Of a stretch of 44,475 bases of DNA, positions 276 through 41,054 are shown piece after piece (positions within the stretch are counted from its first letter, which is position 1; each line of letters starts with the position of its first letter). The notes beneath the pieces were generated by a model, which saw nothing but the letters and a program-made list of their open reading frames with translations, did not search any database and had not been told where the DNA came from. Source of the stretch: a virus. The stretch spans positions 1 to 44,475 of IMG/VR virus record IMGVR_UViG_3300045926_000229. The stretch is one strand, 5' to 3'. The position numbers and the translations under genes were made by a program.

Positions 276-974
276 GTGCGCGCGTATTGGGCCCGCGGTT
301 CCGGGAACGGGAACTTCGGCGATCTCCTAACGGCGTTCCTCTTCCGGCGCCTCCTCGGCGTCGAGCTCGAATGGTCCGAGCGTGAAGACGCCGAGCTATT
401 CGCCGTCGGCTCGATCGCCGAGGCGATCCCGTCCGACTTCGAAGGCGTCGTCCTCGGGTCGGGCTGTATGTTCGACCAGCCGGTCGAGTTCCCGAAGGCG
501 CGCGTCCTCGCTCTCCGCGGGATCCTTACGGCTCGCCTCGCCGGCCTTCACCCGCCACTGCTGGCCGATCTCGGCCTCCTCGCGGCGGATATCCTCGACC
601 GTCGACCGAAGCGCGATATCGAGGTCGCGACGCTCCGGACCGGAGGCGACCCGCGACCCGCGATCGGCGAACTCCTCGATCCCGAGAACGGGGATCCGGA
701 GGCGATTATCGAGACGGCCGCGAGGTCGAAGCGGATCGTCAGTAGCAGCCTTCACGGCCTGGTCCTCGCGGACGCGCTCGGGATCGTGAATATGTGGGAT
801 CCGTACCCTCCGGCCGACGCCGGCGCCGGCTTCAAGTTCCGCGATTACGCCTCGGCCTACGGCGAGCGGATCGAGCCGTTTACGTGGCGCGTGGCCGATC
901 AGGTCCTCGTCGGCGCGAAGCAGGAAGCGCTCCGAGCGTCGCTGCGCGACCTCCCGATCGGCGCGCCGGCGTGA
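276..974 (+). CDS. Polysaccharide pyruvyltransferase-like protein
   Basis: Family enzymes move pyruvate from phosphoenolpyruvate onto a sugar of a cell-wall or exopolysaccharide (CsaB/WcaK group, GT-B-like fold). The 232-aa protein shows the N-terminal Asn-Phe-Gly-Asp motif (about residues 13-16), a mid-protein GSG turn, and the C-terminal Ser-Ser-Leu-His-Gly motif near residue 153 followed by an Ala-Leu-Gly segment, the hallmark of the family. It is shorter than the 300-400 aa bacterial enzymes, which is common in phages. It starts with GTG directly after the preceding stop and overlaps the ParB-like gene by 4 nt. The target is unknown; together with the other sugar enzymes of this phage, a virion or envelope glycan is a reasonable guess. 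Confidence 0.75.
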   Translation: MRAYWARGSGNGNFGDLLTAFLFRRLLGVELEWSEREDAELFAVGSIAEAIPSDFEGVVLGSGCMFDQPVEFPKARVLALRGILTARLAGLHPPLLADLGLLAADILDRRPKRDIEVATLRTGGDPRPAIGELLDPENGDPEAIIETAARSKRIVSSSLHGLVLADALGIVNMWDPYPPADAGAGFKFRDYASAYGERIEPFTWRVADQVLVGAKQEALRASLRDLPIGAPA

Positions 975-1741: not shown

Positions 1742-2621
1742 CGCGGATCCGCGGTCCTGGGCCGCGTTTATCCTCACGAACGGCCGGCCGGAGAAGCAGC
1801 TTACGTACCGCTCCCTCCGTCGCCACGGCTATACCGGCCGGATCGTCCTCGTCGTCGACGACGAGGACCCGACCCTCGACGCCTACCGCGAGCGCTTCGG
1901 CGACGAAGTCGAGACCTTCTCGAAGGCGGAGGTCGCGGAGACCTTCGACCCGGCCGACCTCTCGACGGACCGTCGGACCATCGTCTACGCGCGGAACGCG
2001 TCCTACGAGATCGCTCGCCGGCTCGGCCTCGATTACTTCCTCGCGCTCGACGACGACTACACGTCGTTCCTCTATCGCTATACCGGGCGCCAGGGTCCCT
2101 ACTCGCACAAGCGCTCGATGACTGGCGCGACCGAGATCCGGTCCTTCGACCAGGTCGCCGAAGCGATGTTCCGGCTCCTCGACGATACCGGCGCCGTAAC
2201 GGTCGCGATGTCGCAGGGAGGCGACCATATCGGCGGAGGCGGAGCGTGGACGATGGTCCACGGCTATAAGCGAAAGGCGATGAACTCGTTCTTCCTCCGG
2301 ACCGACCGGCCGGTCCGCTTCGTCGGCCGGCTAAACGAGGACGTCAACGCCTACGCGCTCTTCGGCTCCCGCGGCGACCTCTTCCTCTCGGTCTCGGCGT
2401 TACAGCTAAACCAGGCGGCGACGCAGGGAACGCCGGGAGGAATGACCGAGATCTACCTCGCCAGCGGGACCTACGTTAAGTCGTTCTATACGGTGCTAAT
2501 GTGCCCGTCCTTCGTTACGATCGCGCCGATGGGAACGCAGCAGAACCGGCGCCTCCACCATCGGATCGCCTGGGAGAACGCCGTCCCGAAGATCCTCGCG
2601 CCGGAGCTCCGCCGTGGGTAG
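1731..2621 (+). CDS. TET-associated-type glycosyltransferase (TAGT-like)
   Basis: A GT-A-like glycosyltransferase of the phage family first noted beside TET/JBP dioxygenases, where it is proposed to glycosylate hydroxymethylated cytosine in phage DNA. Visible motifs in the 296-aa protein are VVDDEDPT (about 41-48), an acidic metal/nucleotide-sugar site LALDDDY (about 104-110) and NEDVNAY (about 202-208), plus a Gly-rich stretch near 165. The ATG overlaps the ParB-like gene by 11 nt and the stop overlaps the small terminase start by 8 nt. I find no TET/JBP dioxygenase and no cytosine-5 methyltransferase in the window, so the acceptor is open: it might be DNA modified by host enzymes, a different base or a protein. 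Confidence 0.7.
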   Translation: MPTSADPRSWAAFILTNGRPEKQLTYRSLRRHGYTGRIVLVVDDEDPTLDAYRERFGDEVETFSKAEVAETFDPADLSTDRRTIVYARNASYEIARRLGLDYFLALDDDYTSFLYRYTGRQGPYSHKRSMTGATEIRSFDQVAEAMFRLLDDTGAVTVAMSQGGDHIGGGGAWTMVHGYKRKAMNSFFLRTDRPVRFVGRLNEDVNAYALFGSRGDLFLSVSALQLNQAATQGTPGGMTEIYLASGTYVKSFYTVLMCPSFVTIAPMGTQQNRRLHHRIAWENAVPKILAPELRRG

Positions 2622-5339: not shown

Positions 5340-6700
5340 ACATCGTTTCGACCGTATCGCGTCCGTTCGAGACGGTCGGCGCGGCGGTATTCGGCGGCGT
5401 CTCGATGCTCTTCGGCCGAGCTCGCTCGACGACGCTCTACCTCGGCCGAACCAGGATCGACTACGCGAGCGAGATCGGGGATCCGGCGACGAACTCGATC
5501 GTCGGCGCCGTCGTCGGCTGGATCGCGCGTAACCTCCCGGAGGCGCCGATCCGGATCGTTAAGGAGGGAACGACCGAGGTCGCGTTCGAGGCGTCCGCGA
5601 CCGGACCAGGCGCGATGCTCCGCCTTCTCGCGAACCCGAACCGATACTTCTCCGGCGAGCTCCTTCTTAACGCCGTCGTCGTCGACTATCACATTCGCGG
5701 GAACGCGTACCTCGCTAAGGGTCGGGCTCCCGGCGGGCGCGTTACCTCGCTATGGTGGATCCCGGCCGGGATGCTCGAACCGAAGTGGCCGGAGGACGAC
5801 CCGACCGTCTTTATCGGCTGGTACGAGTACACCGTCGACGGCGTTAAGTACGCGATCCGACCGGAGGACGTCGTCCACTTCCGGTACGGCGTCGACCCGC
5901 GGAATACGAGGAAGGGTCTCGCGCCGATCGCGCCGCTAACCCGCGAGATCTTCACGGACGACGAGGCGGCGAACTTTACGGCCTCGCTCCTAAAGAACCT
6001 CGGCGTTCCCGGCGTCGTCCTCGCGCCGGCGAATACGACGGGCCCGACCGGGCGCCAGGACCCGGAGACCGTGAAGTCGAAGTTTATGGAGAAGTTCGGC
6101 GGCGATAAGAGAGGCGAGCCGCTCGTCCTGACGTCGCCGACCGACGTTAAGGTCCTCTCGTTCGCGCCGAAGGATATGGAGCTCGCCGCGCTCCGGCGGA
6201 TCCCGGAGGAGCGGATCTCGGCGAACCTCGGCGTTCCGGCTGGCGTCGCTCAGCTTGGCGCCGGCCTCGACCGGAATACGTTTACGAACTACGGCGAGGG
6301 GAACGTCGCGGCCTACACGCAGGGCGTCATCCCGAAGCAACGCCTCCTAGCCGGCGACCTCGAACGGCAACTCCTCCCGGAGTTCGCGGACGGCGAGGAG
6401 CTCGCCGGCCTCGACGTATGGTTCGACTGGACTCGCGTCGCGGCTATGTCGGCGCTGGCCGCGGCGGTATGGGCGAGGCACGAAAGCGCGGCGACGAAGG
6501 GTCTCCTAACCCGGCGCGACTTCAAGCGCGCGGTCGGGAAGCCGCACGACGCCTCGGACGACGTTTACGTGATGCCGAATAACTACGTCGTCGTCGAGCC
6601 GAAGGTCGACCCGATCCGGCTCGTCGCGGAGCGTCCGGCTCCGCCGCGGCTCCTTAACCCGCCGGCGCCGGACGAGGAAGCGGCGGTCGCCGCGAACTGA
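5336..6700 (+). CDS. Portal protein, HK97 type
   Basis: Twelve-subunit ring at the capsid vertex through which DNA passes. The 454-aa sequence is typical of the Phage_portal family: an N-terminal [18 protein letters not shown] segment, an early [14 protein letters not shown] region, [18 protein letters not shown] (about 180-190) and the central [15 protein letters not shown] turn (about 295-309) before a long C-terminal helix. The GTG at 5336 is preferred over 5327 because GGAGG at 5322-5326 lies 9 nt upstream. Its TGA overlaps the ATG of the fibre gene by one base. Confidence 0.9.
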
Positions 6701-7701
6701 TGGTCGACCAGCCGGACCCGAACCTCGGACCCGTCGAGCGGCCGAAGCCGAGGCATAAGCACCCGGAATATATCGATCGTTCCGAGCTCGAAGGAGCGGT
6801 TCCCGGCGCGGAGGGACCTCCGGGTCCGGAGGGTCCTCCGGGTCCGGAGGGACCTCCCGGCGAACAGGGGCCGATCGGCGAGCAGGGTCCTCCCGGAGAT
6901 CCGGGACCAGCCGGCGACCCTGGTCCTCCCGGAGATCCCGGAGCGACGGGAGAGCAGGGACCCGACGGAGATCCCGGACCCGACGGGTCGCCGGGACCCG
7001 ACGGAGCTCCGGGAATGGACGGAGCCGACGGTGATAAGGGTCCTCCGGGAGATCCCGGTCCCGTCGGCGACCCTGGTCCGACGGGAGATCCCGGTCCGGC
7101 CGGCGAGGTCGGAGATAAGGGTCCGACCGGCGATCCCGGCGCGGTCGTCTGGCCGATCGGGATTATCGTCGCCTGGTCGGGTCCGGTCGCCGAGATCCCG
7201 TCCGGCTGGTCGCTATGCGACGGCGCGAACGGGACGCCGGACCTCCGGGATCGGATGATCCTCGGCGCCGGCGGCTCCCGATCGCCGGGAGCGACCGGAG
7301 GCGCGGAGACGCACGGTCACTCGTTTAACCAGCCGAACGCGCATCCGGCGCTCTCTCACGCTGGCGCGGCCGTCTCGGCGCACGTCGTTACACAGCCGGA
7401 CGCGCATACTCAGGTCCCGAACCATACGCACCCGCAGATGCGGTTCCCGACGGCGACCGGCGGATCGACCGGGTTTACGGTCGACACGTCGATGTCGGGA
7501 ACGCCAGCCGCGGCGAACGACACCGGGAACCCGAGCGGAGGCGTCGCGTCGGTCCCGCACTCCGGGACGGCGGTCGCCGCTCACTCCGTAACGCAGCCGA
7601 ACGACCATGCGAGCGCGAGTCACGCCGGAGGGTCCGTCGCCGACGGGAGCTCCCTCTCTCCCTGGTACGCGCTGGCGTTGATCATGCGAACGAGCGCGTA
7701 A
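6700..7701 (+). CDS. Collagen-like fibre with tail-collar-type C-terminus
   Basis: 333 aa. A short N-terminal anchor (about 1-35) is followed by about 35 Gly-X-Y triplets (about 36-148), then a collar/receptor-binding type domain: [20 protein letters not shown] (about 167-186) and a His-rich, Gly/Ser-rich segment, ending in [10 protein letters not shown]. Such proteins form trimeric fibres, with Gly-X-Y as a stalk. The position between portal and prohead protease, not among the tail genes, is unusual and suggests a head or neck fibre, although tail attachment is equally possible. The ATG overlaps the portal stop by one base. Confidence 0.85.
6811..7140 (+). repeat. Gly-X-Y coding repeat (collagen-like stalk)
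   Basis: Imperfect 9-nt units inside the fibre gene, encoding Gly-Pro-Glu, Gly-Asp-Pro and Gly-Pro-Ala type triplets without interruption. Neighbouring units are near-identical in places (6814-6860, 7035-7100), so the stalk length could change easily by slippage or recombination. Confidence 0.85.
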
Positions 7702-9042: not shown

Positions 9043-10581
9043 GTGCGTGACATTCCCTACCAGCGCTTCGCGGGAAGCGTGGCGGCGTTCGGCGCCTATG
9101 GCGCGCCGTCGTTCGCCGGCTACCGCGTGAGCGGTCGACTCGCGCTCCTCGTCGGCCTTCTCGCCGTCGTCGGAGCGCTCTACTTCCTCGGCGCGATCGG
9201 GCCCGAAGGCGTCGCCTACGCTGGCGTCGCGGCGGTTCCGCTCGGCGCCGGCGCATCGAAGCGCGAAGAGGCGCTCGCGAAGCTCCTCGAAGCGAAGGCG
9301 CTCGTCGGCGAGGACGATACGGTCTCGCCGGAGAACGAGGAGTCCTTCGCCGCGCTTATGACCGAGTTCCGAGATCTCGACCGGGAGGCCGCGAAGATCG
9401 CCGGCCAGGACGAGAACATCGGCACCATGCGCGAGCGGTTGGAGTGGTACACCGGCCAGGCGACCGGAACGCCGCTCCGCTGGCAGCGGACGACGATCGA
9501 CGATACGTCGGCGCTCTCGCCAGGCGAGCAGTTCGTCCGGTCCGACGCCTATAAGGGCCTCGTCTCGTCCGGCGTTATCCAGACGCCGAACGGGAAGTTC
9601 CGGACGGATCCGGTCGTCGTCGGCCGGCCGATCCCGTCGCAGATCCAGGGCGCCGCGAGCGATATCATCCAGACCGAGAGCGGCGGGCCAGCTAACGCGC
9701 TCATCACGCCGTATCGCCTTCCGGGGATCCTCGGCTTGCAGCAGCGGCCGCTCACCGTCCGGGATCTCTTCCCGAACGAGAACATGACCTCGGGCGACAC
9801 GATCGAATACGCGCAGCAGTCCGGGTTCGATAACGCCGCGGCCGCGGTCGCTCAGGCGACGGCGACGAACGGCTCGGACGCGGCCGGCGGGCTTAAGCCT
9901 CAGTCCTCGATCGCATGGACCGAGGCGACGGCTCCCGCGCGCTGGATCGCTACCTACATGGTCGCGACCCGTCAGGCGCTCGCGGACGAGTCGCAGGTTC
10001 GCTCGCTGATCGATAACCAAGGCCGGCTGATGATCCGGCTCGAAGAGGAAGACCAGCTCGTCGCCGGAAACGGGACCGCTCCGAATATCTCGGGCATCCT
10101 CGACCAAAGCGGGCTGCAACTCCTCGACGTCTCGGCGTACTACGACGATAAGAACCTCGACGCGATCCGGACGGCTCGTCGCCTGGTCCGGACCGGGACG
10201 TCGCGGCTTCGCCCGTCGTTCGTCCTCGTCAATCCGATCGACTCGGAAGAGTTCGATCTCATGCAGGACAACGAAGGCCGCTACCGCGCTGGCGACCCGT
10301 TCGCCTCGATCATCGGGAATATCGACGACGCCGCGCCGATCTGGCGCCTCCGCCGAGTCGAGACCGAAGCGCTCGACGCCGGGACGGTTCTCGTCGGCGC
10401 GCGCGAGGGTGCGACCGTTTGGGATCGCCAGCCGTTGACGGTCCTCACGGCCGACCAGCACTCGGACTTCTTCGTCCGGAACCTCGTCGTTATCCTCTTC
10501 GAGGAGCGGCTCGCGTTCCCGATCTACTTCCCGACCGCGTTCGTGAAGATCACCCTCGACGACTGGACGGCCGGCTCCTAA
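9043..10581 (+). CDS. Major capsid protein, HK97 fold, with N-terminal hydrophobic segment
   Basis: 512 aa. Residues about 75-150 form the charged, helical delta/scaffold region (EEALAKLLEAKAL to FRDLDREAAK); the HK97 core follows with typical LRDLFPNE-like, ARWIATYMVATRQALADE (about 301-318) and FEERLAFPIYFPTAFVKI (about 486-503) segments. The odd part is residues about 30-65, a long uncharged hydrophobic run that looks like a membrane helix pair. The GTG start has a clear AAGGAG about 9 nt upstream, so the extension appears genuine. C-ending codons before A are commoner here than elsewhere, as expected for high expression. Confidence 0.9.
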   Translation: MRDIPYQRFAGSVAAFGAYGAPSFAGYRVSGRLALLVGLLAVVGALYFLGAIGPEGVAYAGVAAVPLGAGASKREEALAKLLEAKALVGEDDTVSPENEESFAALMTEFRDLDREAAKIAGQDENIGTMRERLEWYTGQATGTPLRWQRTTIDDTSALSPGEQFVRSDAYKGLVSSGVIQTPNGKFRTDPVVVGRPIPSQIQGAASDIIQTESGGPANALITPYRLPGILGLQQRPLTVRDLFPNENMTSGDTIEYAQQSGFDNAAAAVAQATATNGSDAAGGLKPQSSIAWTEATAPARWIATYMVATRQALADESQVRSLIDNQGRLMIRLEEEDQLVAGNGTAPNISGILDQSGLQLLDVSAYYDDKNLDAIRTARRLVRTGTSRLRPSFVLVNPIDSEEFDLMQDNEGRYRAGDPFASIIGNIDDAAPIWRLRRVETEALDAGTVLVGAREGATVWDRQPLTVLTADQHSDFFVRNLVVILFEERLAFPIYFPTAFVKITLDDWTAGS

Positions 10582-10623
10582 GCCGACCGGCTAGCCTAAC
10601 GAGACGATGGAAGGAGGCGCTCG

Positions 10624-10722
10624 GTGCCCGGTCTGCGGAGCTCCGGGCGCCTCCTGTACTACCGAGGCGTCGAGCGTGGCGTCGCTTCGGTTCCCTCCGA
10701 TCCGCGCGATAGGAGAACCTAG
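10624..10722 (+). CDS. Small ORF of uncertain frame after the capsid gene
   Basis: Two frames compete. A 32-aa ORF starts with GTG at 10624, 6 nt after a perfect AAGGAGG (10611-10617), and ends just before the next gene; its product is basic and unrecognised. In another frame, an ATG at 10607 encodes RCPVCGAPGASC, which resembles the small CxxC proteins often found after phage capsid genes, but that frame then runs through the whole of the next gene. Either could be real, or the CxxC frame could be a remnant joined to the next gene by a lost base. Confidence 0.4.
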   Translation: MPGLRSSGRLLYYRGVERGVASVPSDPRDRRT

Positions 10723-10727
10723 GACCG

Positions 10728-10913
10728 ATGGCCGACACGAAGGAGAAGGTCTACCTCCCGCGGATGCGGGTCCGGCCGGGTTTCCGGCACAGCTACCAGG
10801 GAAAGAACGTCGTCGTCGTCGACGAGAAGGGCAAGACGACGGCCGGCGGCGAGTTCTCGACGATCTCGACCGAGAAGCCGACCTCGCGCCAGTCGACGAC
10901 GAAGGCGAAGTAG
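10728..10913 (+). CDS. Small hypothetical protein of the head-completion region
   Basis: 61 aa, Lys-rich, with a central RPGFRHSYQGKNVVVVDEKGK stretch (about residues 17-37) that suggests a small beta-rich fold, and a Ser/Thr/Lys tail. Not recognised. It sits between the capsid and connector genes, where phages often encode small decoration or head-completion proteins. The high use of AAG and of C-ending codons resembles the capsid gene and hints at good expression. Confidence 0.65.
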   Translation: MADTKEKVYLPRMRVRPGFRHSYQGKNVVVVDEKGKTTAGGEFSTISTEKPTSRQSTTKAK

Positions 10914-10920
10914 GCTTCGT

Positions 10921-11478
10921 TTGACGCTCCTATCCGTCGCCGACCTCCGGACGCTTCCCGTCTTCCGCTCCGAGGAGACGTTTCCGGACGCTTGGCTCCA
11001 AATCCTCCTCGACGCGACCGAGGCCGAGATCGCCGACGAACTCGGCGGTCCGGTCGGGTCCGTAACGGAGGTCGTCGACGGATCGCTCCTCTCGTGGCTG
11101 ACGCTTCGGCGTCGCGCCGACTCGATTACGACGATCGTCGAGACGAGCGACTCGGTCGTAACGACGATCGCGGCCGACGACTATCGGATCGCGCTCGATC
11201 GCCGGTCTCTTCAACGCCTCGGAACCGGGACGAACCCGTCGGCGCGCTGGCCGCGCCTGGTCTCCGTTACCTACGCGGCCGAGGCCGACGAGCCGACGAG
11301 GAAGCGCGTGCAGAAGGCGCTCGTCGAGCTCGACGCCGGCTACGCGCCTGGTCGGACCGACGAGCAGATCGGCGCGTGGCGCGAGTCCTACCAGCAGTCG
11401 AGCGTGTGGAACTACCAGACCGAGCGGAAGGCGATCCTCGCGACGCTCTGGCCGACCTACGAGATCGACTTCGCGTGA
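10921..11478 (+). CDS. Head-tail connector protein (HK97 gp6-like)
   Basis: 185 aa. All-helical N-terminal half with FPDAWLQILLDATEAEIADELGG (about 21-43, first part is the diagnostic helix), then a beta segment and a C-terminal helix bundle, as in the Phage_connect/gp6 adaptor that docks on the portal. The TTG start at 10921 is the first one available after the preceding stop; the ribosome-binding site is weak. The TGA overlaps the next GTG. Position and fold outline support the call more than sequence motifs do. Confidence 0.7.
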   Translation: MTLLSVADLRTLPVFRSEETFPDAWLQILLDATEAEIADELGGPVGSVTEVVDGSLLSWLTLRRRADSITTIVETSDSVVTTIAADDYRIALDRRSLQRLGTGTNPSARWPRLVSVTYAAEADEPTRKRVQKALVELDAGYAPGRTDEQIGAWRESYQQSSVWNYQTERKAILATLWPTYEIDFA

Positions 11479-11870
11479 GTTTCACCGGGCGCCTAATCCA
11501 TCGCCTCGCGATCGTCGTCGACGGCGCCGGGGATCCGGAGGATCCGAACGACCTCGACGCGTACGGTCACGCCGAGGCGAACCCGCCGGTCGAGACGCTC
11601 GTATGGGGTCTCGTCCAACCGAGGACGGTCGAGGAGCTCCGGACGGTCTCTCAGGCGGGACCCGAGATCGGAGATCACGTCGTCTTCCTCGAACCGCGGA
11701 ACCTCCCGGCTAGCGCGTACCTCGTCGACGCCGACGAAGACGGCGCGCTCCCGACCGGCCGACGCTTCGATATCGTCGGCGTCCGCGACTTCGCCTTCGG
11801 CCGGACGCCTCACCTAGAGGTCGACGTCCGGCTAATCGGGCGCTCGGAGGCTCCCTCGACGGGATCGTGA
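11475..11870 (+). CDS. Head closure / head-tail adaptor protein
   Basis: 131 aa, mostly beta-stranded: LIHRLAIVVDG at the N-terminus, EIGDHVVFLEPRNLPASAYLVD in the middle and a final HLEVDVRLIG strand, the outline of SPP1 gp16/HK97 gp7-type closure proteins. The GTG start overlaps the connector stop and its TGA overlaps the GTG of the tagD-like gene, so the glycan island begins without any gap. The function is assigned mainly from order in the head-tail block. Confidence 0.6.
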   Translation: MSFTGRLIHRLAIVVDGAGDPEDPNDLDAYGHAEANPPVETLVWGLVQPRTVEELRTVSQAGPEIGDHVVFLEPRNLPASAYLVDADEDGALPTGRRFDIVGVRDFAFGRTPHLEVDVRLIGRSEAPSTGS

Positions 11871-12319
11871 ACGGTCGCCGGGTCGTCTATACCGGCGGGA
11901 CCTTCGACCTCCTCCACGTCGGACATATCGAGCTCCTCCGCGGCTGTCGAGCGCTGGCCGGCTTCGGCGGGCTCGTCGTCGCCTCGGCGAATACCGACGA
12001 GTTCGTCGAGCGCTACAAGGGTCGGCGTCCGACGTACCCTCTCGCCGAACGGCTAGAGATCCTCCGGTCGATCCGCTACGTCGACGTCGTCGTCGTTAAC
12101 GTCGGCGACGAGGACTCGCGGCCGGCGATCGAGGCGAGCGGCGCGACGCTCCTCGCGATCGGCGACGACTGGCTCGATCGGGAGGCCGCGGATCCGGAAG
12201 CGCGCTACCGCGCGCAACTCGGCGTCTCGCGCGACTGGCTCCTAGAACGGCGCCTCCGGATCGAGTACATTCCTCGTACTCGCGGAAGGGCGAGTTCGGA
12301 GATACGGAAGGAGCTCTAG
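11867..12319 (+). CDS. tagD: Glycerol-3-phosphate cytidylyltransferase (TagD-like)
   Basis: Would make CDP-glycerol from CTP and glycerol 3-phosphate, the activated precursor of teichoic acids. The 150-aa protein matches the family from end to end: GTFDLLHVGH (about 10-19) with the HxGH nucleotide site, TDEFVERYKGRRPTYPLAER (about 44-63), IGDDW (about 98-102) and the closing RTRGRASSEI (about 137-146), equal to the RTxGxSTTxI signature. All expected catalytic residues are present. GTG start, GTGA overlap upstream; the following GT starts right after its stop. Another CDP-alcohol cannot be excluded. Confidence 0.88.
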   Translation: MNGRRVVYTGGTFDLLHVGHIELLRGCRALAGFGGLVVASANTDEFVERYKGRRPTYPLAERLEILRSIRYVDVVVVNVGDEDSRPAIEASGATLLAIGDDWLDREAADPEARYRAQLGVSRDWLLERRLRIEYIPRTRGRASSEIRKEL

Positions 12320-13021
12320 GTGTTCTCGATCCTGGTCCCGTCGCGCGGCCGTCCGGAGCGCGCCGCGGCGATGGTCCGAAGCGTCTTCGCGACCCGAAGG
12401 CGCGTTCCCGTCGAGGTCGTCGTCATCGTCGACGACGACGACCCGAAAGCGGAGGAGTACCTCCGCCTCCTCCCTGGTCGAGTCCGGCTCTTAACCGAGC
12501 GGATCGGCTACTCGGCTTCGCTAAACCTCGTCGCGCGGGAGCTCCTCGGCGACCCGCGGAACCTCGTCTTCGGCGCGTTCGGCGACGACGTTCTCTTCCG
12601 CACGGAGGGATGGGATCGCCTGGTCGCGCGGGCACTTGCGCGACCAGGCATCGCCTACGGTAACGATCTCGTCCACGCCGCGGGCCATCCGACGGCGGTA
12701 TGGATGAGCCGCGAGATCGTCGAGGCGCTCGGCTGGCTGGCGCTCCCTACGTCGTGGCATCTGTGGGTAGACGACGCGTGGAAGAGGCTAGGGCAGGAGA
12801 CCGGGACCCTTCGCTACCTCCCGAACGTCGTCGTCGAGCATATGCACCCGGCGGTCGGGAAGGCCGATATGGACGAGACCTACCGCGAGGTGTACGACGC
12901 CGATCGCGGGCACCGCGATCATCTAGCCTTCCTCGCGTGGGAAGAGAGCGGTCTCGCCGGCGACGCCGCGAAGGTCCGGATGGCGCTCTCGAAGTTCTCG
13001 CGGGAGTTCCGCCGTGCATGA
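12320..13021 (+). CDS. Glycosyltransferase family 2-like (GT-A)
   Basis: 233 aa. It begins with the GT2 beta-alpha unit FSILVPSRGRP (about 2-12), then VVIVDDDDP (about 34-42), a metal-binding GDD (about 89-91) and a second acidic WHLWVDDAW (about 150-158), with VVVEHMHP near 175 as in phage GT2 proteins. It should transfer a sugar from a nucleotide-sugar, acting in the cytoplasm. The GTG directly follows the tagD-like stop, and AAGGAG (12308-12313) within tagD serves as ribosome-binding site. Donor and acceptor are unknown. Confidence 0.78.
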   Translation: MFSILVPSRGRPERAAAMVRSVFATRRRVPVEVVVIVDDDDPKAEEYLRLLPGRVRLLTERIGYSASLNLVARELLGDPRNLVFGAFGDDVLFRTEGWDRLVARALARPGIAYGNDLVHAAGHPTAVWMSREIVEALGWLALPTSWHLWVDDAWKRLGQETGTLRYLPNVVVEHMHPAVGKADMDETYREVYDADRGHRDHLAFLAWEESGLAGDAAKVRMALSKFSREFRRA

Positions 13022-13490
13022 CTCCGTAATGGCGTGGATCGCCGACCAGGTCGAGCGCTTCGAGCTCGCTGGCCGACCCGCTCTCGAAGTCGGGTCGCTC
13101 GACGTTAACGGCTCGGTCCGGTCGCTCTTCGCCGGCGACTATATCGGGATCGATATGCGCGACGGACCAGGCGTCGATATCGTCGGCCTTGCGTCCGACC
13201 TTCCGTTCCGCGACGCGGCGTTCGAGGTCGTCGTTACGACCGAGACCTTCGAGCATGACCCGTCCTTCTGGCGGTCGCTCGACGAGATCCGTCGCGTCCT
13301 CGTCCGCGGCGGGCACCTTCTCATTACGACGCGCGGGAACGGCTTCGGCGAGCATTTCGAGCCGAACGACTACTTCCGGTTCATGCCGAACGCGCGCGGC
13401 CTTCTCCTCGATCTCGCCGGCTGCGACCTCGTCGAGGAGGCGCTCGACCCGGAGGTTCCGGGGATCTTCGTTCACGGCGTCCGACGGTGA
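13014..13490 (+). CDS. SAM-dependent methyltransferase (class I, small-molecule type)
   Basis: 158 aa with the order of a Methyltransf_11-type fold: PALEVGSLDVNG (about 22-33, glycine motif I, somewhat degenerate), YIGIDMRDGPGVD (motif II acidic residue), ASDLPFRDAAFEVVVTTETFEH (motif IV/V region) and RRVLVRGGHLLITT (about 92-105). It lacks the NPPY/DPPY or PCQ motifs of DNA methyltransferases, so a sugar or other small acceptor is more likely. O-methylation of a glycan would suit its neighbours. The GTG start overlaps the upstream gene by 8 nt. Confidence 0.75.
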   Translation: MHDSVMAWIADQVERFELAGRPALEVGSLDVNGSVRSLFAGDYIGIDMRDGPGVDIVGLASDLPFRDAAFEVVVTTETFEHDPSFWRSLDEIRRVLVRGGHLLITTRGNGFGEHFEPNDYFRFMPNARGLLLDLAGCDLVEEALDPEVPGIFVHGVRR

Positions 13491-14158
13491 GGACCCTCGT
13501 CGCGATCCCGACCCGGTACGAGCCGGAGCGGGTCCTCTCGCTGGTCTACGCCGTCCTCGCCGAACCGAGAACCTCCGTCCTCCTCCTCGATAACGGGCAT
13601 TCGCCGGCGCTCGTCGAGCGGATCGACCTCTCGTACGTCGAGGTCCGCTCGACGCCGGAGCTCGGGATCTACGAAATGTGGAACGAGGCGGTCCGCGTCG
13701 CCGAGGACCGCGCCGTCGACGTCCTGGTCCTCTTAAACGACGACGTTCGGATCCGGACGGGAACGATCGGGATCCTCGCCGACGTCCTCCGGAACCATCC
13801 GGAGGTCGGCGTCGCCTGTCCGGACTGGCCTACGCCGCTCGACCGCGGGATCCCGGACCGGATCGCGCTCCGCCGGGTCGGAGGCGCCGGCGCTCACGAA
13901 GGGATGACCGGGTTCTGCTTCGCGATGCGCGTCGGGCTCCCGGTCCGCTTCGATACCCGCTTCGGATGGTGGTACGGCGACGATATGTTCGCTCGCCTGG
14001 TCCTCGCGGCCGGCTACCGGATCGTCCGGGTCGAGGGTCTCCCGATCGAGCATGACTCGGACGCCGAGCGTAACGGATGGGCCCGCCGGCCGGAGCTCGA
14101 AGCGATCGCCGCGAAGGACGGGATCCTATGGAACCAGCTAACGGACGAGAACCGATGA
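13487..14158 (+). CDS. Glycosyltransferase family 2-like (GT-A)
   Basis: 223 aa. LVAIPTRYEPERV at the N-terminus, the SVLLLDNGHS strand (about 28-37), ELGIYEMWNEA (about 54-64), the DxD-like LLNDDVRI (about 83-90), GMTGFCFAMR (about 142-151) and FGWWYGDDMFARL (about 161-173), which is the typical acceptor-side WxGDD motif of phage and capsule GT2 enzymes. GTGA overlap with the methyltransferase and ATGA overlap with the next gene, so strictly co-translated. Substrates unknown. Confidence 0.8.
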   Translation: MRTLVAIPTRYEPERVLSLVYAVLAEPRTSVLLLDNGHSPALVERIDLSYVEVRSTPELGIYEMWNEAVRVAEDRAVDVLVLLNDDVRIRTGTIGILADVLRNHPEVGVACPDWPTPLDRGIPDRIALRRVGGAGAHEGMTGFCFAMRVGLPVRFDTRFGWWYGDDMFARLVLAAGYRIVRVEGLPIEHDSDAERNGWARRPELEAIAAKDGILWNQLTDENR

Positions 14159-15723
14159 GAGTCGTCTTCCTGGTCCCGCGACGTGAGGACGGAGGTCCGC
14201 GAGATCGCCTATGGACCTACGCTCGCGCGCGCTGGTCCGCGCTCTTCCCGGACTGGCCGATCTACGAAGGGCACCATACCGAGGGCCTCTTTAACCGATC
14301 GGCGGCGATGAACCTCGCGTCGGACCTAGCCGACGAGGACGGACCGTGGGATATCGCGCTCGCGATCGACGCCGACGTCTTCCTCCGGAAGTCGTTCGTC
14401 GAGAAGGCGGTCGAGCGAGCCGCCGAGACCGGCCTCGTCGTATGGCCGCACCGGCGATGGCGCGGTCTCGACGAGGTCTCGACGCGCCGCGTCGTCGACG
14501 ATCGGCGGGACTTCGGGCCCGAGATCGATCGCGAGGATATGGACCTCCTCGTCGAGCGGACGAACCCGCTCTCCTGGTCCTGCTGCATCGCGATCCCGCG
14601 CGCGGCGTGGGACCGGCTCGGCGGCTTCGACGAGCGGTTCCGCGGGTGGGGTTGGGAGGATATGGCCTTTCAATGTGCGGTCGTCGGCCTGGTCGGCTAC
14701 GAACGCCTCGACTCGGACGTTTACCACCTCTGGCACCCGCGGAGCGAGGAGCGGATCGAGAAGGGTAAGCCGGCCGAGACGGCGAACGCCGCTTACCTCG
14801 ATAACGGGCGCCTCGGCCGGCGCTATATGGTCGCGCTCCGGCGAGACCATAACCAGCACGATCGACCGACGGATCCCGACGAGGCCGAGCGAGAGCGAGA
14901 TATCGCGAACCTCCGGAAGGACGAGCAGCGCTTCGAGACGCTCGCGCGCCGCGCTGGCCTCCCGGCGTGGCGCGATTGGTGGCCGACCCTCGACGAGCTC
15001 GTCGAGGGAGCGAAGGCCGCGCGCGGAGGCGACGAGGCGTCCTCGATCGCCGTTATCGTCCGGACCGGAGGCGAGCCGGACGTATGGGAGGACCGGCGGG
15101 AATATCTCCGTCGCTCGCTCGCGTCGTTGACGGAGAGGGTCTCCGGACCGATTACGCGCCGGGTCGTCTATTCGGACTGGTCCGACGAGTTCCGACCGGA
15201 GGTCGAGACGATCGCGAAGGAGTTCGGGTTCTACGTCGCCGGCGAAGGGCACCACGGCTATACGAAGGCGGTCTCGCGCCTGTGGAGCTATATCGACCGG
15301 CGCGTTACCGAGCCGTTCGTCTTCCTGGTCGAGGACGACTTCCTCTACCTCCGCGACGTCGACCTCGCGCCGATGATCGAGACCGTCCGGCGCTCGGCGA
15401 GGACGAAGCAAGTCGCGCTCCTCCGAGGACCCGTCTTCGACCGAGAGTTCGACCTCGGCCTCCTCGGCTGGCCGGAGGACGACTTCGAGCTCGTCGACGA
15501 GGGAACCGACCGCGAGCGGCTCGAACATCGCCTCTTCTGGACGATGAACCCGAGCGTCTTCCGGCGGGAGCTCGTCCGTACGCCGTGGCCGCTCGTCCAT
15601 TCCTCGGAACGTCGGTTCGGCGACCTCCTCCTCCGGGACCAGGACGCGCGGTTCGCGCTCCGGGGATCCGGCGAGGCGTGGATCGAGCATATCGGCGAGG
15701 TCCGCTCGACGAGTGCCTACTAG
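14155..15723 (+). CDS. Two-domain glycosyltransferase
   Basis: 522 aa, twice the size of its neighbours. Domain 1 (about 1-250) has LVPRREDGGPR, the DxD in AIDADVFLRKSF (about 74-85), and GGFDERFRGWGWEDMAFQ (about 157-174), as in the galactosyltransferase-type C-terminal motif. A charged linker (about 240-300) leads to domain 2, with SSIAVIVRTGGEP (about 302-314), RRSLASLTERV, a DxD-like FLVEDDFLYL (about 389-398) and WTMNPSVFRRELV (about 462-474). Two active sites suggest two consecutive sugar transfers or a repeating disaccharide. The ATG at 14155 gives the ATGA overlap; a longer upstream frame is spurious. Confidence 0.78.
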   Translation: MRVVFLVPRREDGGPRDRLWTYARARWSALFPDWPIYEGHHTEGLFNRSAAMNLASDLADEDGPWDIALAIDADVFLRKSFVEKAVERAAETGLVVWPHRRWRGLDEVSTRRVVDDRRDFGPEIDREDMDLLVERTNPLSWSCCIAIPRAAWDRLGGFDERFRGWGWEDMAFQCAVVGLVGYERLDSDVYHLWHPRSEERIEKGKPAETANAAYLDNGRLGRRYMVALRRDHNQHDRPTDPDEAERERDIANLRKDEQRFETLARRAGLPAWRDWWPTLDELVEGAKAARGGDEASSIAVIVRTGGEPDVWEDRREYLRRSLASLTERVSGPITRRVVYSDWSDEFRPEVETIAKEFGFYVAGEGHHGYTKAVSRLWSYIDRRVTEPFVFLVEDDFLYLRDVDLAPMIETVRRSARTKQVALLRGPVFDREFDLGLLGWPEDDFELVDEGTDRERLEHRLFWTMNPSVFRRELVRTPWPLVHSSERRFGDLLLRDQDARFALRGSGEAWIEHIGEVRSTSAY

Positions 15724-16738
15724 CCTCGACGCGCTCTCCTTCGAGTCGCACTTCCTCGACCATATTCGGCCGGTATGGCGCGAGCTCCGGAAGCGGAACC
15801 TCGCCGGCCGGCTGGTCGTCGAGCGGACCCTCGTCGATCGCGCGGAGGGATACGGCTTCGGCGATCTCGACGTATACGACGCCGTCGAGGTCCGACGGAG
15901 GGAGCGCTATCCGGAACCTCGACCAGGCGACGGACCGACGGCGCTCGTCGCCTCCTACGGCGATATCAAGCTCGGTCGGCGACTCGGCTATCGGAACTTC
16001 GTCTTCCTCGAACATGGCGCCGGCCAGTCGTACGAAGGCGACCGTCGACAGACGCGGCACCCGTCCTACGCCGGCGGGATCGATCGCGAGGACGTCGCGC
16101 TCTTCCTGGTCCCGAACGAATACTCGGCGAAGCGCTGGCGCGCGGCGTATCCCGCGGTCCGGACGGAGATCGTCGGGTCGCCGAAGCTCGACGACCTACC
16201 GGCGCGCGGGCCGGGGCCTCGGCCTACGGTCGCGGTCTCGTTTCATTGGGACTCGTCGATCATCCCGGAGATCCGCTCCGCGCTCGGGCACTACCGAGCG
16301 GTCCTCCCGGCGCTGGCCGAGCGGTTCGCCGTGATCGGTCACGGGCACCCGCGCGCGTACGAGCTCGCGCGGGTCTATCGCCGGCTCGGGATCGAATACG
16401 TCCCGGAGTTCGAGGAGGTCTGCCGGCGCGCCGACGTCTACGCGTGCGATAACTCGTCGACCCTCTTCGAGTTCGCGGCGCTCGATCGGCCGGTCGTCGT
16501 CCTGAATGCTCCCTGGTATCGACGGAACGTCGAGCACGGCCTCCGGTTCTGGGAGGCGCGGAGTATCGGCGTGAACGTCGACGAACCGGCCTACCTCGCC
16601 GACGGCGTCGCCTACGCGCTCGAAGACGACGCTATCGCGCGACGAGCGAGGGAGAAGGCGCTCCGGCTGGTGTATACCTATCGGAGCGGCGGAGCCGTCC
16701 GAGCCGCGGACGCGATCGCCGAGTTCCTCGGAGGGTAG
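15713..16738 (+). CDS. CDP-glycerol glycerophosphotransferase-like (TagB/TagF family)
   Basis: 341 aa, GT-B fold. Recognised by FLEHGAGQSY (about 98-107), holding the catalytic-type His-Gly, the inter-domain VGSPKLDDL (about 154-162), IGHGHPR (about 206-212), and the nucleotide-binding DNSSTLFEFAALDRPVVVLN (about 246-265). Family enzymes transfer glycerol phosphate from CDP-glycerol, which the TagD-like enzyme 3.5 kb upstream could supply. It is shorter than cellular TagB (about 380 aa) and lacks an obvious membrane anchor. It overlaps the glycosyltransferase by 11 nt and closes the island, 4 nt before a tail gene. Confidence 0.82.
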   Translation: MPTSLDALSFESHFLDHIRPVWRELRKRNLAGRLVVERTLVDRAEGYGFGDLDVYDAVEVRRRERYPEPRPGDGPTALVASYGDIKLGRRLGYRNFVFLEHGAGQSYEGDRRQTRHPSYAGGIDREDVALFLVPNEYSAKRWRAAYPAVRTEIVGSPKLDDLPARGPGPRPTVAVSFHWDSSIIPEIRSALGHYRAVLPALAERFAVIGHGHPRAYELARVYRRLGIEYVPEFEEVCRRADVYACDNSSTLFEFAALDRPVVVLNAPWYRRNVEHGLRFWEARSIGVNVDEPAYLADGVAYALEDDAIARRAREKALRLVYTYRSGGAVRAADAIAEFLGG

Positions 16739-16742
16739 AGCC

Positions 16743-17198
16743 GTGGCGAAGTTCCGCGGACCGTCGGCGAAGGTCCGGCTCCGGAAGGAGCGGCTAACGG
16801 AGGCGACGTTTATCGTCGCCGACGGCCTCTTCGAGGCCGGCCGGATTATCGTCGAGTCGGCCTCCGCCTCGGCGCCGGACTCGCCGTTCGATCCCTATCC
16901 GACGGGCGAAGGTCTCCCGAAGCAGGGCGGCGTCCTCGCCTACGTCGGGAACGATAAGGTCGACGGCTGGTCGATCCGCGGTCCGCAGCCGAGGAAGCCG
17001 CGCTCGATCCGGATCCTCACCGGCCGTCACTCGGTAACGGTCGCCGTCGGCTTCGGCTTCCCTGGTCGGCTGGCCGAGACCGGGACCGTCGATACGGCTC
17101 CTCAGCCGTTCCTCGCGCCGAGCCGGGACCGTCACGCCGGGGCGATCCCGCGGATCGTCGCGGCGACGACCCGGCCGAGACTGGCCGGGAACCGATGA
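16743..17198 (+). CDS. HK97 gp10-like head-tail/tail component
   Basis: 151 aa. An N-terminal amphipathic helix (EATFIVADGLFEAGRIIVESA, first 18 shown by residues about 19-36) precedes PYPTGEGLPKQGG and a C-terminal beta part with VGFGFPGRLAETGTVDTAPQ (about 100-119) and LAPSRD, the usual pattern of the HK97_gp10_like/minor capsid family that completes the neck. It would normally follow the head-closure gene directly, so the glycan island is inserted between these two. GTG start, with GGAGGGTAGAGCC just upstream. Confidence 0.75.
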   Translation: MAKFRGPSAKVRLRKERLTEATFIVADGLFEAGRIIVESASASAPDSPFDPYPTGEGLPKQGGVLAYVGNDKVDGWSIRGPQPRKPRSIRILTGRHSVTVAVGFGFPGRLAETGTVDTAPQPFLAPSRDRHAGAIPRIVAATTRPRLAGNR

Positions 17199-17446
17199 AT
17201 ACCTTCGACGTACCCTGCGCTCGGCCGGGATGCCGGGAGACCCGCGGCGAGCATCCTCGCGGCGGTCGCTGCGTACGCTCGGCGTGCGAGTGCGAGAAGT
17301 ACGTCGCCGGAGCCGCGGCGCCGGTCGAGCGAACCGATAGCGGCGAGGGAGACCTCGTCTCCGTCGTCGTTCCGAAGGGGTTCGGAGTCCGCTTCGAGCT
17401 CTATCCGCTCGGACCCGAAGTAACGATCGAGGAGGAGAAGTCGTGA
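17195..17446 (+). CDS. Small Cys-rich protein
   Basis: 83 aa, not recognised by name. The N-terminal half has six Cys (CARPGC, then CVRSACEC at about 26-33), spaced as in small zinc-binding phage proteins with a GEHP motif between; the C-terminal half is beta-like with VVPKGFGVRFELYP. The ATG forms an ATGA overlap with the gp10-like gene and its TGA overlaps the tail terminator GTG. A structural zinc site is likely; the role is unknown. Confidence 0.65.
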   Translation: MNTFDVPCARPGCRETRGEHPRGGRCVRSACECEKYVAGAAAPVERTDSGEGDLVSVVVPKGFGVRFELYPLGPEVTIEEEKS

Positions 17447-17892
17447 CCGAACCGCTCGTCGATCCGATCGGTCCGCTGATCATCGAAGCGCGCGCGGTCT
17501 CGGAGATCGCCGCGATCGTCGGAGCTCGCGTCCGCGGGTTCGAGCCGCACGGCGCGACGGACTCCTACGAAGGCGACGCGCTCGGACCAGGGAAGTACAA
17601 GGCGTTCCTGGTCCTCTTCGCGCTCTCGATCCCGCCGGACTTCCGGGTCCCGATTATCCGCGCCGAGATTGGCTTTCGCGCCTACGGCCGGACCCTAGAG
17701 GAGGCGATGGCGCTCTACGGCGCCGTCGTGGCCGGCTTCCACCGCCGGAAGCACCGTATTGCGTCCGACGGTCTCGGCATCTATCGTACGAGCGTCACCG
17801 GCGGCGAGCAGTCGAAGGACCCGAGCACGGACCAGCCGCTCGTCACCGGGACGATCGAGCTACTCGCGACCTCTCAGGCGGTCGCGGTCTAG
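17443..17892 (+). CDS. Tail terminator / tail completion protein
   Basis: 149 aa. Alpha-beta protein with PLIIEARAVSEIAAIVGARV, an FLVLFALSIPPDFRVPIIRAEIGFRAYG beta core (residues about 62-89) and TLEEAMALYGAVVAGFHRRKHR (about 90-111). This outline and the place directly before the tail tube gene fit terminators that cap the tail and join it to the neck. GTG start in a GTGA overlap. Assigned mostly from order and fold outline. Confidence 0.65.
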   Translation: MTEPLVDPIGPLIIEARAVSEIAAIVGARVRGFEPHGATDSYEGDALGPGKYKAFLVLFALSIPPDFRVPIIRAEIGFRAYGRTLEEAMALYGAVVAGFHRRKHRIASDGLGIYRTSVTGGEQSKDPSTDQPLVTGTIELLATSQAVAV

Positions 17893-17935
17893 CCGGAGGT
17901 CGGGACGCTCGACCTCCGAGCGAGGAGGTCGAGAC

Positions 17936-18379
17936 TTGGCGGTATCGCCGCGCGTCATTACGCTCGACGGACGAGCCGTCATCGTCGTCGACCGGAAGCC
18001 GCCTCTTCCCTCGACCCTCGAAGTCCTCCTCTCCGGAGGCCGCGACGAGACCGGCCGACTCTGGCCGAAACTCCGCGTCGCGTTCCGGGACCCGCTTCGG
18101 ATTACCGGCGCCTCCCGCGCCTGTACGGACTCCTCGAACGGCGACGCCGAGGCGAACCATCGCCTCCGGCGCTGGCTCGAAGGGTTCTACGTTGGCTCGG
18201 ACGGGATCGCCCGCTTCCTCTCTCTTCATGCGTGTGCGGACTGTGGCGCCGTATGCGTTCGCGACCGCTCGATCGACGAGCTCGATCGGCTGCCTACCGG
18301 AGGCCGGCCGCTCCGGCGACGAGACGAAGTCCTCGGCTGGTATAGCGGCGCTCGTCCGCTCGGCCGAACCTATACCTAG
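17936..18379 (+). CDS. Hypothetical protein with CxxC motif
   Basis: 147 aa, unrecognised. The TTG start is chosen because a full AGGAGGT (17923-17929) lies 6 nt upstream, while the longer frame begins inside the tail terminator gene. A beta-rich first half (VITLDGRAVIVVDRKPP) is followed by LHACADCGAVCVRD (about 97-110), probably half of a zinc site, and a basic tail. The gene stands between tail terminator and tail tube, with 43 nt and 16 nt gaps. Confidence 0.65.
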   Translation: MAVSPRVITLDGRAVIVVDRKPPLPSTLEVLLSGGRDETGRLWPKLRVAFRDPLRITGASRACTDSSNGDAEANHRLRRWLEGFYVGSDGIARFLSLHACADCGAVCVRDRSIDELDRLPTGGRPLRRRDEVLGWYSGARPLGRTYT

Positions 18380-22680: not shown

Positions 22681-23136
22681 ATGCTCCCGGCGGCGATCAT
22701 CGGCCTCCGTTACGACGGGACCGACCTACAGACCGACGATATCCGGCTAGAGATCCGGAGCGGCCTTCACGACGGACTCGACGTCCGCGGGAAGGACATA
22801 ACGGTCCCGTACCTCGAAGGGCAACTCTCCCGGCCGCGGCGCGCTCACGATCGGCGGATCGTCCTCGGAGGTCCGGTACAGGGGAACGGGCTCGACGAAG
22901 AGAACACCTCGCGAATGGCCTCGTTCCGCTCCTCGCTCTTCCTCCTCGACCAGCTATTCGACCCGGCTCGGGACGAGGCGGAGCTCGAAGCGACGCTCGA
23001 AACGGGTCAGATCGCGACCATCAACGCGCGACCGCTTCCCGGCCTGGTCATCGAGGAGCGGATCGCGTCTCACTACGCCGACGTTTCGATAACCCTCCTC
23101 GCCGTCTCGCCGTACTGGCTGGTCTCGTCGTCGTGA
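22681..23136 (+). CDS. Distal tail (Dit-like) protein
   Basis: 151 aa. N-terminal beta strand and the LEIRSGLHDGLDVRGKD-VPYLEGQLSRPR segment (about 25-55) that lines the Dit ring, then RIVLGGPVQGNG and a C-terminal ISITLLAVSPYW-like strand. Short compared with two-domain Dit proteins, so it probably has only the ring domain. The ATG directly follows the tape measure stop. Dit joins the tube to the hub encoded downstream. Confidence 0.75.
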   Translation: MLPAAIIGLRYDGTDLQTDDIRLEIRSGLHDGLDVRGKDITVPYLEGQLSRPRRAHDRRIVLGGPVQGNGLDEENTSRMASFRSSLFLLDQLFDPARDEAELEATLETGQIATINARPLPGLVIEERIASHYADVSITLLAVSPYWLVSSS

Positions 23137-23330
23137 CGATCGAGATCGCTGGCGTCAAGGTCCGGATCGAAGGGACGATCGACGAGGCCGAGATCGGCGT
23201 AATCGCGACCATGCTCGCCGAGGCGGTCGAGGCGCACGGTCCGTGTATCCTCACGACCCGCTGTAACCCGTCCGGCGAGATCGCGATCGGCGGGGATGGC
23301 GTCGTCCGGATCCTCCTCGCCGAGGCGTAG
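23133..23330 (+). CDS. Small hypothetical protein
   Basis: 65 aa: two beta strands (TIEIAGVKVRIEG), an acidic helix (TIDEAEIGVIATMLAEAVEAHG), then CILTTRC and a final strand. Not recognised. The GTG is in a GTGA overlap with the Dit-like gene and the stop is 2 nt before the hub gene. The longer frame that begins far upstream inside the tape measure is spurious. Could be a small baseplate spacer; no direct evidence. Confidence 0.55.
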   Translation: MTIEIAGVKVRIEGTIDEAEIGVIATMLAEAVEAHGPCILTTRCNPSGEIAIGGDGVVRILLAEA

Positions 23331-23332
23331 GC

Positions 23333-40550: not shown

Positions 40551-41054
40551 GTGGGATCGGTTTACGTCGTCCTCTACCTCGCGGCGATCGTCGTCGCGAA
40601 CCTCCTCGTCGCGACCTACGGACCCGTCGCGGCGATCCCGGTCGCGTTCGTCTTCGTCGGGTTCGACCTCGTCTCGCGAGACGCGCTACACGATCTCTGG
40701 CGCGGCCGGACGCTATGGCCGCGGATGCTGGCGCTCGTCGCCGTCGGAGGCGCGCTCTCGTACGTCGTGAACGCCGACGCCGGCCGGATCGCGATCGCCT
40801 CGACGATCGCCTTCGCCGCTAGCGCTCTCGCCGACGCCGCGACGTATCACGTCCTCCGCCGCCGCCGCTTCCTCGAACGGGCGAACGGCTCGAACGTCGT
40901 CGGTGCGGCCGTCGACTCGCTCCTCTTCCCGACGATCGCCTTCGGCGCGATCCTCCCGGCGATCGTCCTCGGTCAGTTCGTCGCGAAGGTCGCCGGCGGC
41001 GCGCTTTGGGCCTACCTACTCCGGCCTCGACTCGTCCTCCGGCCGGCCGAATGA
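40551..41054 (+). CDS. VUT-family (YhhQ-type) queuosine precursor transporter
   Basis: 167 aa, about five hydrophobic spans. Recognised by the family stretches FVGFDLVSRDALHDLWRG (about 37-54), RIAIASTIAFAASALADAATY (about 84-104) and FLERANGSNVVGAAVDSLLFPTIAF (residues about 110-134). Family members import queuosine precursors such as preQ0 or preQ1. The gene is translationally coupled (ATGA) to the DpdA-like gene, which uses just such bases. GTG start behind AAGGAAGGAG. Shorter than YhhQ of Escherichia (about 220 aa) as usual in phages. Confidence 0.82.
   Translation: MGSVYVVLYLAAIVVANLLVATYGPVAAIPVAFVFVGFDLVSRDALHDLWRGRTLWPRMLALVAVGGALSYVVNADAGRIAIASTIAFAASALADAATYHVLRRRRFLERANGSNVVGAAVDSLLFPTIAFGAILPAIVLGQFVAKVAGGALWAYLLRPRLVLRPAE

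What the first reader, a model, noticed from the sequence alone, without database searches (positions are those of the whole stretch)
11867..16738. Teichoic-acid-like glycan island embedded in the head-tail genes
Seen: six overlapping genes encode a TagD-like cytidylyltransferase, two GT2 enzymes, a SAM methyltransferase, a two-domain glycosyltransferase and a TagB/TagF-like glycerophosphotransferase, placed between head closure and the gp10-like neck gene. Known: TagD makes CDP-glycerol and TagB/F-type enzymes use it. Inference: supplier and user of CDP-glycerol in one phage operon, plus capping enzymes, suggest that the phage builds a glycerol-phosphate-bearing glycan. Its place among structural genes favours decoration of the virion (capsid or tail) over host wall change, but masking of the host receptor or DNA decoration remain possible. 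The CpA/TpG depletion is kept across the island, so it is an old resident.
Basis: partly seen in the sequence, partly recalled or inferred. Interest (0 to 1): 0.85.

Follow-up and report, generated by a model that had tools for sequence, protein, structure and literature searches.

The report
Phage sugar-coating genes among virion genes
Six genes for building an unusual sugar decoration, one of them related to the enzymes that build teichoic acids in bacterial walls, sit inside the block of genes that build this phage's head and neck; relatives in many other phages sit in the same kind of place, so the phage probably sugar-coats its own particle.

Summary
Six + strand ORFs at 11867-16738 are coupled without gaps to the flanking head-neck genes, and at least five match nucleotidyl-, glycosyl-, methyl- or phosphotransferase families. 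The reading is partly right. Relatives of the last gene (PF04464, TagB/TagF superfamily) turned up in over 120 viral stretches. In 80 of them the nearest non-glycan neighbours are mostly head-tail adaptors, portals, head proteases, major head proteins and methyltransferases. Domain 1 of the two-domain glycosyltransferase is homologous to Che8 gp109, in a cluster linked to mycobacteriophage capsid glycosylation. The tailoring slot varies: methyltransferase + GT, pyruvyltransferase, or GDP-mannose dehydratase + two methyltransferases. These points favour virion decoration. The specific claim 'TagD makes CDP-glycerol and TagB uses it' is weak: the TagD-like protein fails the TagD equivalog cut-off, occurs in only 8 of 80 TagB loci, always beside GT2a, and pairs with GT2a in phages that lack TagB. 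TagB keeps both catalytic histidines but has [E/Q]HGxG where TagF has WHGTP, so its donor is open. Verdict: a new variant of phage virion glycosylation; acceptor and chemistry are not shown.

The parts
11867..12319 (+). TagD-like nucleotidyltransferase (CTP_transf_like; phage clade, phrog_7878)
   Evidence: Pfam 2.5e-14; PDB relatives ethanolamine-P CT and TagD 1coz; TagD equivalog cut-off not met; HxGH and GDDW kept, extra YxxQMGFTxxWL segment in relatives
12320..13021 (+). GT2a: GT-A type glycosyltransferase (phrog_14945/Pas34-like), the usual partner of TagD
   Evidence: Pfam GT2 1.2e-5; phrog_14945 9.6e-47; adjacent to TagD in 8/8 TagB loci with TagD and in Streptomyces/Arthrobacter phages
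13014..13490 (+). SAM-dependent methyltransferase (tailoring slot)
   Evidence: Methyltransf_11 2.2e-9; slot replaced by a pyruvyltransferase in L005
13487..14158 (+). GT2b: second small GT2-type glycosyltransferase (tailoring slot)
   Evidence: Pfam GT2 0.0024, below cut-off; 40% identical homologue beside TagB and GT2x in L088
14128..15723 (+). GT2x: tandem two-domain GT-A glycosyltransferase
   Evidence: GT2 + Glyco_transf_7C; model pLDDT 80, top PDB matches are the tandem GTs K4CP, PmHS2 and LH3; domain 1 homologous to Che8 gp109
15713..16738 (+). TagB/TagF-superfamily (PF04464) GT-B phosphotransferase
   Evidence: PF04464 36.6 bits over a 22.1 cut-off; model pLDDT 92, GT-B fold, TagF 3l7j E 3.3e-9; H101, H212 and S248 invariant in 19 homologues
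276..974 (+). Polysaccharide pyruvyl transferase homologue, probably same pathway though displaced
   Evidence: PF04230 4.4e-5, just under cut-off; ~66% identical to the one inside the island of L005
1731..2621 (+). TAGT (TET-associated glycosyltransferase), role in this pathway unknown
   Evidence: PF20691 4.1e-29; present in 2 of 24 records, beside ParB and terminase genes
6700..7701 (+). Collagen-like fibre with collar-type C-terminus, candidate acceptor
   Evidence: PF01391 6e-17; homologue adjacent to the glycan genes in L085, L088 and L102
10921..11870 (+). Two genes between MCP and island, called head closure/adaptor by position
   Evidence: Position; only weak family hits; homologues precede the island in L085, L086 and L087
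16743..17198 (+). Neck/tail completion protein (HK97 gp10 type)
   Evidence: phrog_5 1.7e-3; 56% identical homologue follows the island in L005

Best explanation
This is a virion glycosylation cassette expressed with the late structural operon. GT2x (two tandem GT-A domains), GT2a and GT2b build a short oligosaccharide on a virion protein (major capsid protein, neck/tail protein or the collagen-like fibre). The methyltransferase, and probably the pyruvyltransferase at 276-974, cap it. The TagB-like GT-B enzyme adds a polyol-phosphate or sugar-phosphate through a phosphodiester bond. The TagD-like enzyme makes a CDP-activated building block, more likely for GT2a than for TagB. Shown: gene content, catalytic motifs, conserved placement among head-neck genes, exchange of tailoring genes, homology to a capsid-glycosylation cluster. 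Inferred: that the acceptor is a virion protein, all donors and linkages, and the order of steps.
For: Tight coupling to head-neck genes, no gap above 7 bp in 10921-17892. The nearest non-glycan neighbours of TagB in 80 loci include head-tail adaptor (8), portal (7), major head protein (7), head protease (8), Neck1 (4) and methyltransferases, 141 proteins scanned; 132 of 155 are on the same strand. The island core is kept in L005 between the same genes at 52-55% identity, similar to the neck gene at 56%. Tailoring genes swap: MT+GT2b, PS_pyruv_trans, GDP-mannose dehydratase + two methyltransferases. GT2x domain 1 matches Che8 gp109 at 64 bits; Che8, Corndog and Myrna virions are reported glycosylated (PMC12363180, citing Freeman 2023), and Corndog has an O-methyltransferase plus three GTs between portal and protease (PMC4351075). 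No membrane segment in any island protein.
Against: No direct chemistry. Gene position only shows co-expression. TagD+GT2a pairs in Streptomyces and Arthrobacter phages are not among structural genes. GT2x model pLDDT is only 80. The window also carries TAGT, a family tied to DNA hypermodification. TagB occurs without any recognised GT2 in near-complete Rctr41k, so the pathway is not one fixed unit.
Confidence: 0.65

Rival explanations
1. Host surface modification: the enzymes alter the host wall glycan or teichoic acid late in infection to mask the receptor, stop superinfection, or prevent progeny binding debris.
For: PF04464 and TagD-like families act in wall and capsule polymer synthesis in bacteria (PMC11666461, PMC5974469). 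Pyruvylation and methylation also occur on wall polymers (general knowledge).
Against: No membrane segments, no priming or flippase genes in the island, and conserved embedding in head-neck genes in many viruses. Serotype-conversion modules known to me usually have membrane proteins and lie elsewhere.
Confidence: 0.15
2. DNA decoration: the glycosyltransferases glycosylate modified bases in the phage genome to resist restriction.
For: TAGT at 1731-2621 beside a ParB-like gene; phrog_2675 is annotated DNA methyltransferase.
Against: No TET/JBP domain over the cut-off in the window or in 23 related records (one sub-threshold hit). TAGT is in only 2 of 24 records. The phrog_2675 protein of phiAsp2 (Pas34) is noted in its record as a putative O-methyltransferase fused to GT2a, close behind tail genes.
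Confidence: 0.1
3. A literal CDP-glycerol pathway: TagD makes CDP-glycerol and TagB transfers glycerol-phosphate to the glycan.
For: Both superfamilies present; TagD motifs HxGH and GDDW kept; TagF is among the best structural matches.
Against: TagD equivalog cut-off failed. Only 8 of 80 TagB loci have TagD, always beside GT2a. Gly replaces the Pro that flanks glycerol in TagF, Glu/Gln replaces the Trp of WHG, and Glu replaces the Asp after Ser-Ser (PMC10299916, PMC11666461). UDP-GlcNAc 2-epimerase fits the fold at least as well (TM 0.67 against 0.59-0.64).
Confidence: 0.25

Closest known systems
Virion glycosylation in mycobacteriophages Che8, Corndog and Myrna (Freeman et al. 2023, known here through PMC12363180 and PMC4351075)
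   Same: Phage-encoded GTs and, in Corndog, an O-methyltransferase inside the head gene block; GT2x domain 1 homologous to Che8 gp109
   Different: No PF04464 phosphotransferase, TagD-like or pyruvyltransferase is described in those clusters in the texts read
TagF-like capsule polymerases and transition transferases (Cps7A, Cps3D, Bcs3)
   Same: PF04464-type GT-B enzyme with two catalytic histidines working with GT-A or GT-B partners
   Different: Those make capsule polymers in bacteria; the phage enzyme has [E/Q]HGxG instead of WHGTP and stands alone, without TPR or fused GT domains
Wall teichoic acid genes tagD, tagB and tagF
   Same: Same superfamilies
   Different: TagD equivalog threshold failed; no lipid-linked pathway genes; not linked to each other in most phages
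Actinoplanes phage phiAsp2 Pas33-Pas35
   Same: GT2a fused to an O-methyltransferase, with further GTs, close behind tail genes
   Different: No TagB or TagD annotated there; order and fusion differ
Virus Rctr41k gene 32 (KX853513)
   Same: 43% identical TagB-like gene between an SU10-type adaptor and head genes
   Different: No TagD or GT2 match in the whole record

Membership tests
CDP-glycerol glycerophosphotransferase family PF04464 (TagB/TagF) | Profile score over the curated cut-off | tested here: met
   36.6 bits against 22.1 for the whole protein; C-terminal half only; 4 of 5 records over cut-off
CDP-glycerol glycerophosphotransferase family PF04464 (TagB/TagF) | GT-B fold like TagF | tested here: met
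   Model pLDDT 92; TagF 3l7j E 3.3e-9, TM 0.59-0.64; other GT-B enzymes match equally well
CDP-glycerol glycerophosphotransferase family PF04464 (TagB/TagF) | Two catalytic histidines (TagF H444, H584) and Ser-Ser | tested here: met
   H101, H212 and S248 invariant, S249 nearly so, in 19 homologues, mapped by motif and spacing, not by superposition
CDP-glycerol-specific transferases (TagF subgroup) | WHGTP motif with Pro flanking glycerol | tested here: not met
   Motif is [E/Q]HGxG with Gly invariant; Gly and QHG are linked to ribitol- and hexose-phosphate transfer (PMC10299916, PMC11666461)
TagD glycerol-3-phosphate cytidylyltransferase | NCBIfam TIGR01518 equivalog cut-off | tested here: not met
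   64.3 bits against 165.4
TagD glycerol-3-phosphate cytidylyltransferase | Use of CTP and glycerol-3-phosphate | not testable with these tools
   Needs an enzyme assay
Phage virion glycosylation systems | Glycosyltransferases encoded in or near structural genes | tested here: met
Phage virion glycosylation systems | Homology to a GT of a characterised capsid-glycosylation cluster | tested here: met
   GT2x domain 1 to Che8 gp109, 64 bits; gp109's own role was not read in the primary paper
Phage virion glycosylation systems | Glycans on virion proteins | not testable with these tools
   Needs mass spectrometry
TET/TAGT DNA hypermodification | TET/JBP dioxygenase making hydroxymethyl bases | tested here: not met
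   None over the cut-off in the window or 23 related records; the window is a possibly incomplete record
TET/TAGT DNA hypermodification | TAGT glycosyltransferase | tested here: met
   PF20691 4.1e-29 at 1731-2621

The most novel reading that the evidence does not exclude
Phages of this group attach a phosphodiester-linked, teichoic-acid-like group (polyol-phosphate or sugar-phosphate) to their own virion proteins with a dedicated TagB-like enzyme. In phages where TagB stands alone among head genes, it would do so directly on the protein.
Probability: 0.3. Interest if true: 0.8.

Novelty: new variant of a known kind. Interest (0 to 1): 0.6.

Why it matters
To my knowledge virion glycosylation is documented in few phages, mainly mycobacteriophages. 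A TagB-like phosphotransferase kept next to portal, capsid and adaptor genes in many diverged phages, with exchangeable methyl, pyruvyl and deoxysugar genes, suggests that chemically elaborate and variable particle coats may be common in phages. That would affect phage adsorption, immune recognition and stability, and it can be tested by mass spectrometry of particles.

Tried and rejected
Single-protein viral scan with TagB found nothing; profile scans were needed. Genome scan for TagB found no cellular or prophage relative. Host by terminase: relatives in Chloroflexi, Proteobacteria, Bacteroidota and Planctomycetota, the full-length ones at 28-49% identity, so host unresolved. Direct residue alignment with TagF failed: PDB profile search gave no relative, and distant cellular PF04464 proteins from Chloroflexota were not usable as anchors. 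The published motif list and spacing were used instead. Anti-phage defence models: no hit in island genes. Methyltransferase versus the Pas34 methyltransferase part: no similarity. Idea that phrog_2675 makes this a DNA-methylation system: rejected, because Pas34 is a GT2a fused to a putative O-methyltransferase. LH3 (collagen glycosyltransferase) as a GT2x match: not used as evidence for collagen as acceptor, since tandem GT-A enzymes in general match. A promoter/terminator scan of 10500-18000 found no promoter-like site and four terminator-like sites, only one of them on the + strand. Corndog records and the Freeman 2023 paper were not held.
Full report
Observation. Six + strand ORFs fill 11867-16738 and are coupled to each other and to the flanking genes, with no gap above 7 bp between 10921 and 17892. 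Pfam assigns them as a CTP-transferase-like protein, a GT2, a SAM methyltransferase, a weak second GT2, a two-part GT2/GT7C protein and a PF04464 phosphotransferase at 36.6 bits over a 22.1 cut-off. Upstream lie terminase, portal, a collagen-like fibre, S49 protease and capsid. Downstream lie Neck1 and a tail terminator. Composition and codon use of the island equal the rest of the window. The record is an IMG/VR virus contig, linear, perhaps incomplete.

More glycan genes exist outside the interval. A pyruvyltransferase homologue lies at 276-974 and is about 66% identical to one that sits inside the island of relative L005. A TAGT glycosyltransferase lies at 1731-2621 next to a ParB-like gene and the terminase.

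Conservation. L005 (IMGVR_UViG_3300048080_000094) keeps TagD, GT2a, GT2x and TagB between the same flanking genes, at 52-55% identity against 56% for the neck gene. The methyltransferase and GT2b are replaced by a polysaccharide pyruvyltransferase. L085 (G001) also keeps TagD, GT2a, GT2x and TagB, with a collagen-like fibre gene between the last two. G021 has GDP-mannose 4,6-dehydratase and two methyltransferases between GT2x and TagB. So a core with an exchangeable tailoring slot is real, as expected for a variable glycan.

Placement. A profile scan found 122 viral stretches encoding TagB relatives. For the 80 kept loci the nearest non-glycan genes were taken: 132 of 155 are on the same strand. 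Of 141 such proteins scanned, the most frequent named families are head-tail adaptor, head protease, portal, major head protein, Neck1 and methyltransferases; phrog_807, the single most frequent family (10 members), is annotated major tail protein but is also the weak hit of the window's own 10921-11478 gene. Counts per family are small (2 to 10) and only the first 25 families are reported, so this is a strong trend and not a rate; no matched control set was scanned. The same trend appears in the gene maps, including TagB alone between capsid/adaptor and neck genes in G005 and Rctr41k.

Link to known virion glycosylation. A profile of GT2x matches Che8 gp109 over domain 1 with 64 bits; BLAST agrees at 23% identity, E 2.6e-7 in a small set. 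Che8, Corndog and Myrna have glycosylated virion proteins, and Che8 gp110 and Corndog gp38 are called essential for it (PMC12363180, citing Freeman et al. 2023, which I could not read). Corndog carries an O-methyltransferase and three GTs between portal and protease (PMC4351075). This is the nearest known system.

What TagB is. The AlphaFold model (pLDDT 92) is a GT-B fold. Best PDB matches include TagF (E 3.3e-9, TM 0.59-0.64), UDP-GlcNAc 2-epimerase (TM 0.67) and vancosaminyltransferases, so the fold alone does not name the donor. Across 19 homologues H101, G102, G104, H210, H212, P213, S248 and E253 are invariant. In TagF, H444 of the WHG motif is the likely base and H584 binds the pyrophosphate (PMC11666461). 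Pro447 flanks the glycerol and is Gly in ribitol-phosphate transferases (PMC10299916). Hexose-phosphate transferases have QHG (PMC11666461). The phage motif [E/Q]HGxG therefore keeps the catalytic residue but not the glycerol signature. This mapping rests on motif order and spacing; direct alignment failed.

What TagD is. It is closest to ethanolamine-phosphate and glycerol-3-phosphate cytidylyltransferases but scores 64 against the equivalog cut-off of 165, and belongs to a phage clade with an extra segment. Eight of 80 TagB loci have it and in all eight it abuts GT2a. It pairs with GT2a in Streptomyces and Arthrobacter phages without TagB. One of 80 TagD loci has TagB. GT2a is therefore its more likely partner.

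Alternatives. DNA decoration: TAGT is present, but TET/JBP is absent from all 24 records except one sub-threshold hit, and TAGT is in 2 of 24. Host surface change: cannot be excluded, but there are no membrane segments and the structural placement is persistent. Probabilities are my judgement: virion decoration 0.65, host surface 0.15, DNA 0.10, remainder other. The literal CDP-glycerol chemistry (0.25) is a question inside these and does not add to them.

Verdict. It is a new variant of phage virion glycosylation, with an added PF04464 phosphotransferase whose donor and acceptor remain to be found.

Noticed in passing
window 1-44475: Extreme CpA/TpG avoidance (rho 0.28-0.36 in every 5-kb bin, 0.17-0.28 at codon positions 2-3 and 3-1; TCA 1 of 593 Ser codons, ACA 3 of 621 Thr codons) with GpA/TpC excess 1.75. 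Relatives that share island genes have rho CA about 0.8-1.4, so this is peculiar to this virus or its host.
   Followed up: partly
window 971-2621; record G020 22829-24485 (L128): ParB-like plus TAGT cassette next to the terminase, also in G020 and, as TAGT beside a ParB-like nuclease, in Lactobacillus phage c5; function without TET unknown.
   Followed up: partly
window 6700-7701; L085, L088, L102: Collagen-like fibre gene that lies directly beside the glycan genes in three relatives; possible glycan acceptor.
   Followed up: partly
L136 5992-7782 (phiAsp2 Pas34), phrog_2675: Annotated DNA methyltransferase is a GT2a domain fused to a putative O-methyltransferase, close behind tail genes; the family name looks wrong.
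   Followed up: partly
window 41051-41638: ORF starting MIYLSGKVVDGVPAMITPAMGH with no Pfam or PADLOC hit; not identified.
   Followed up: no
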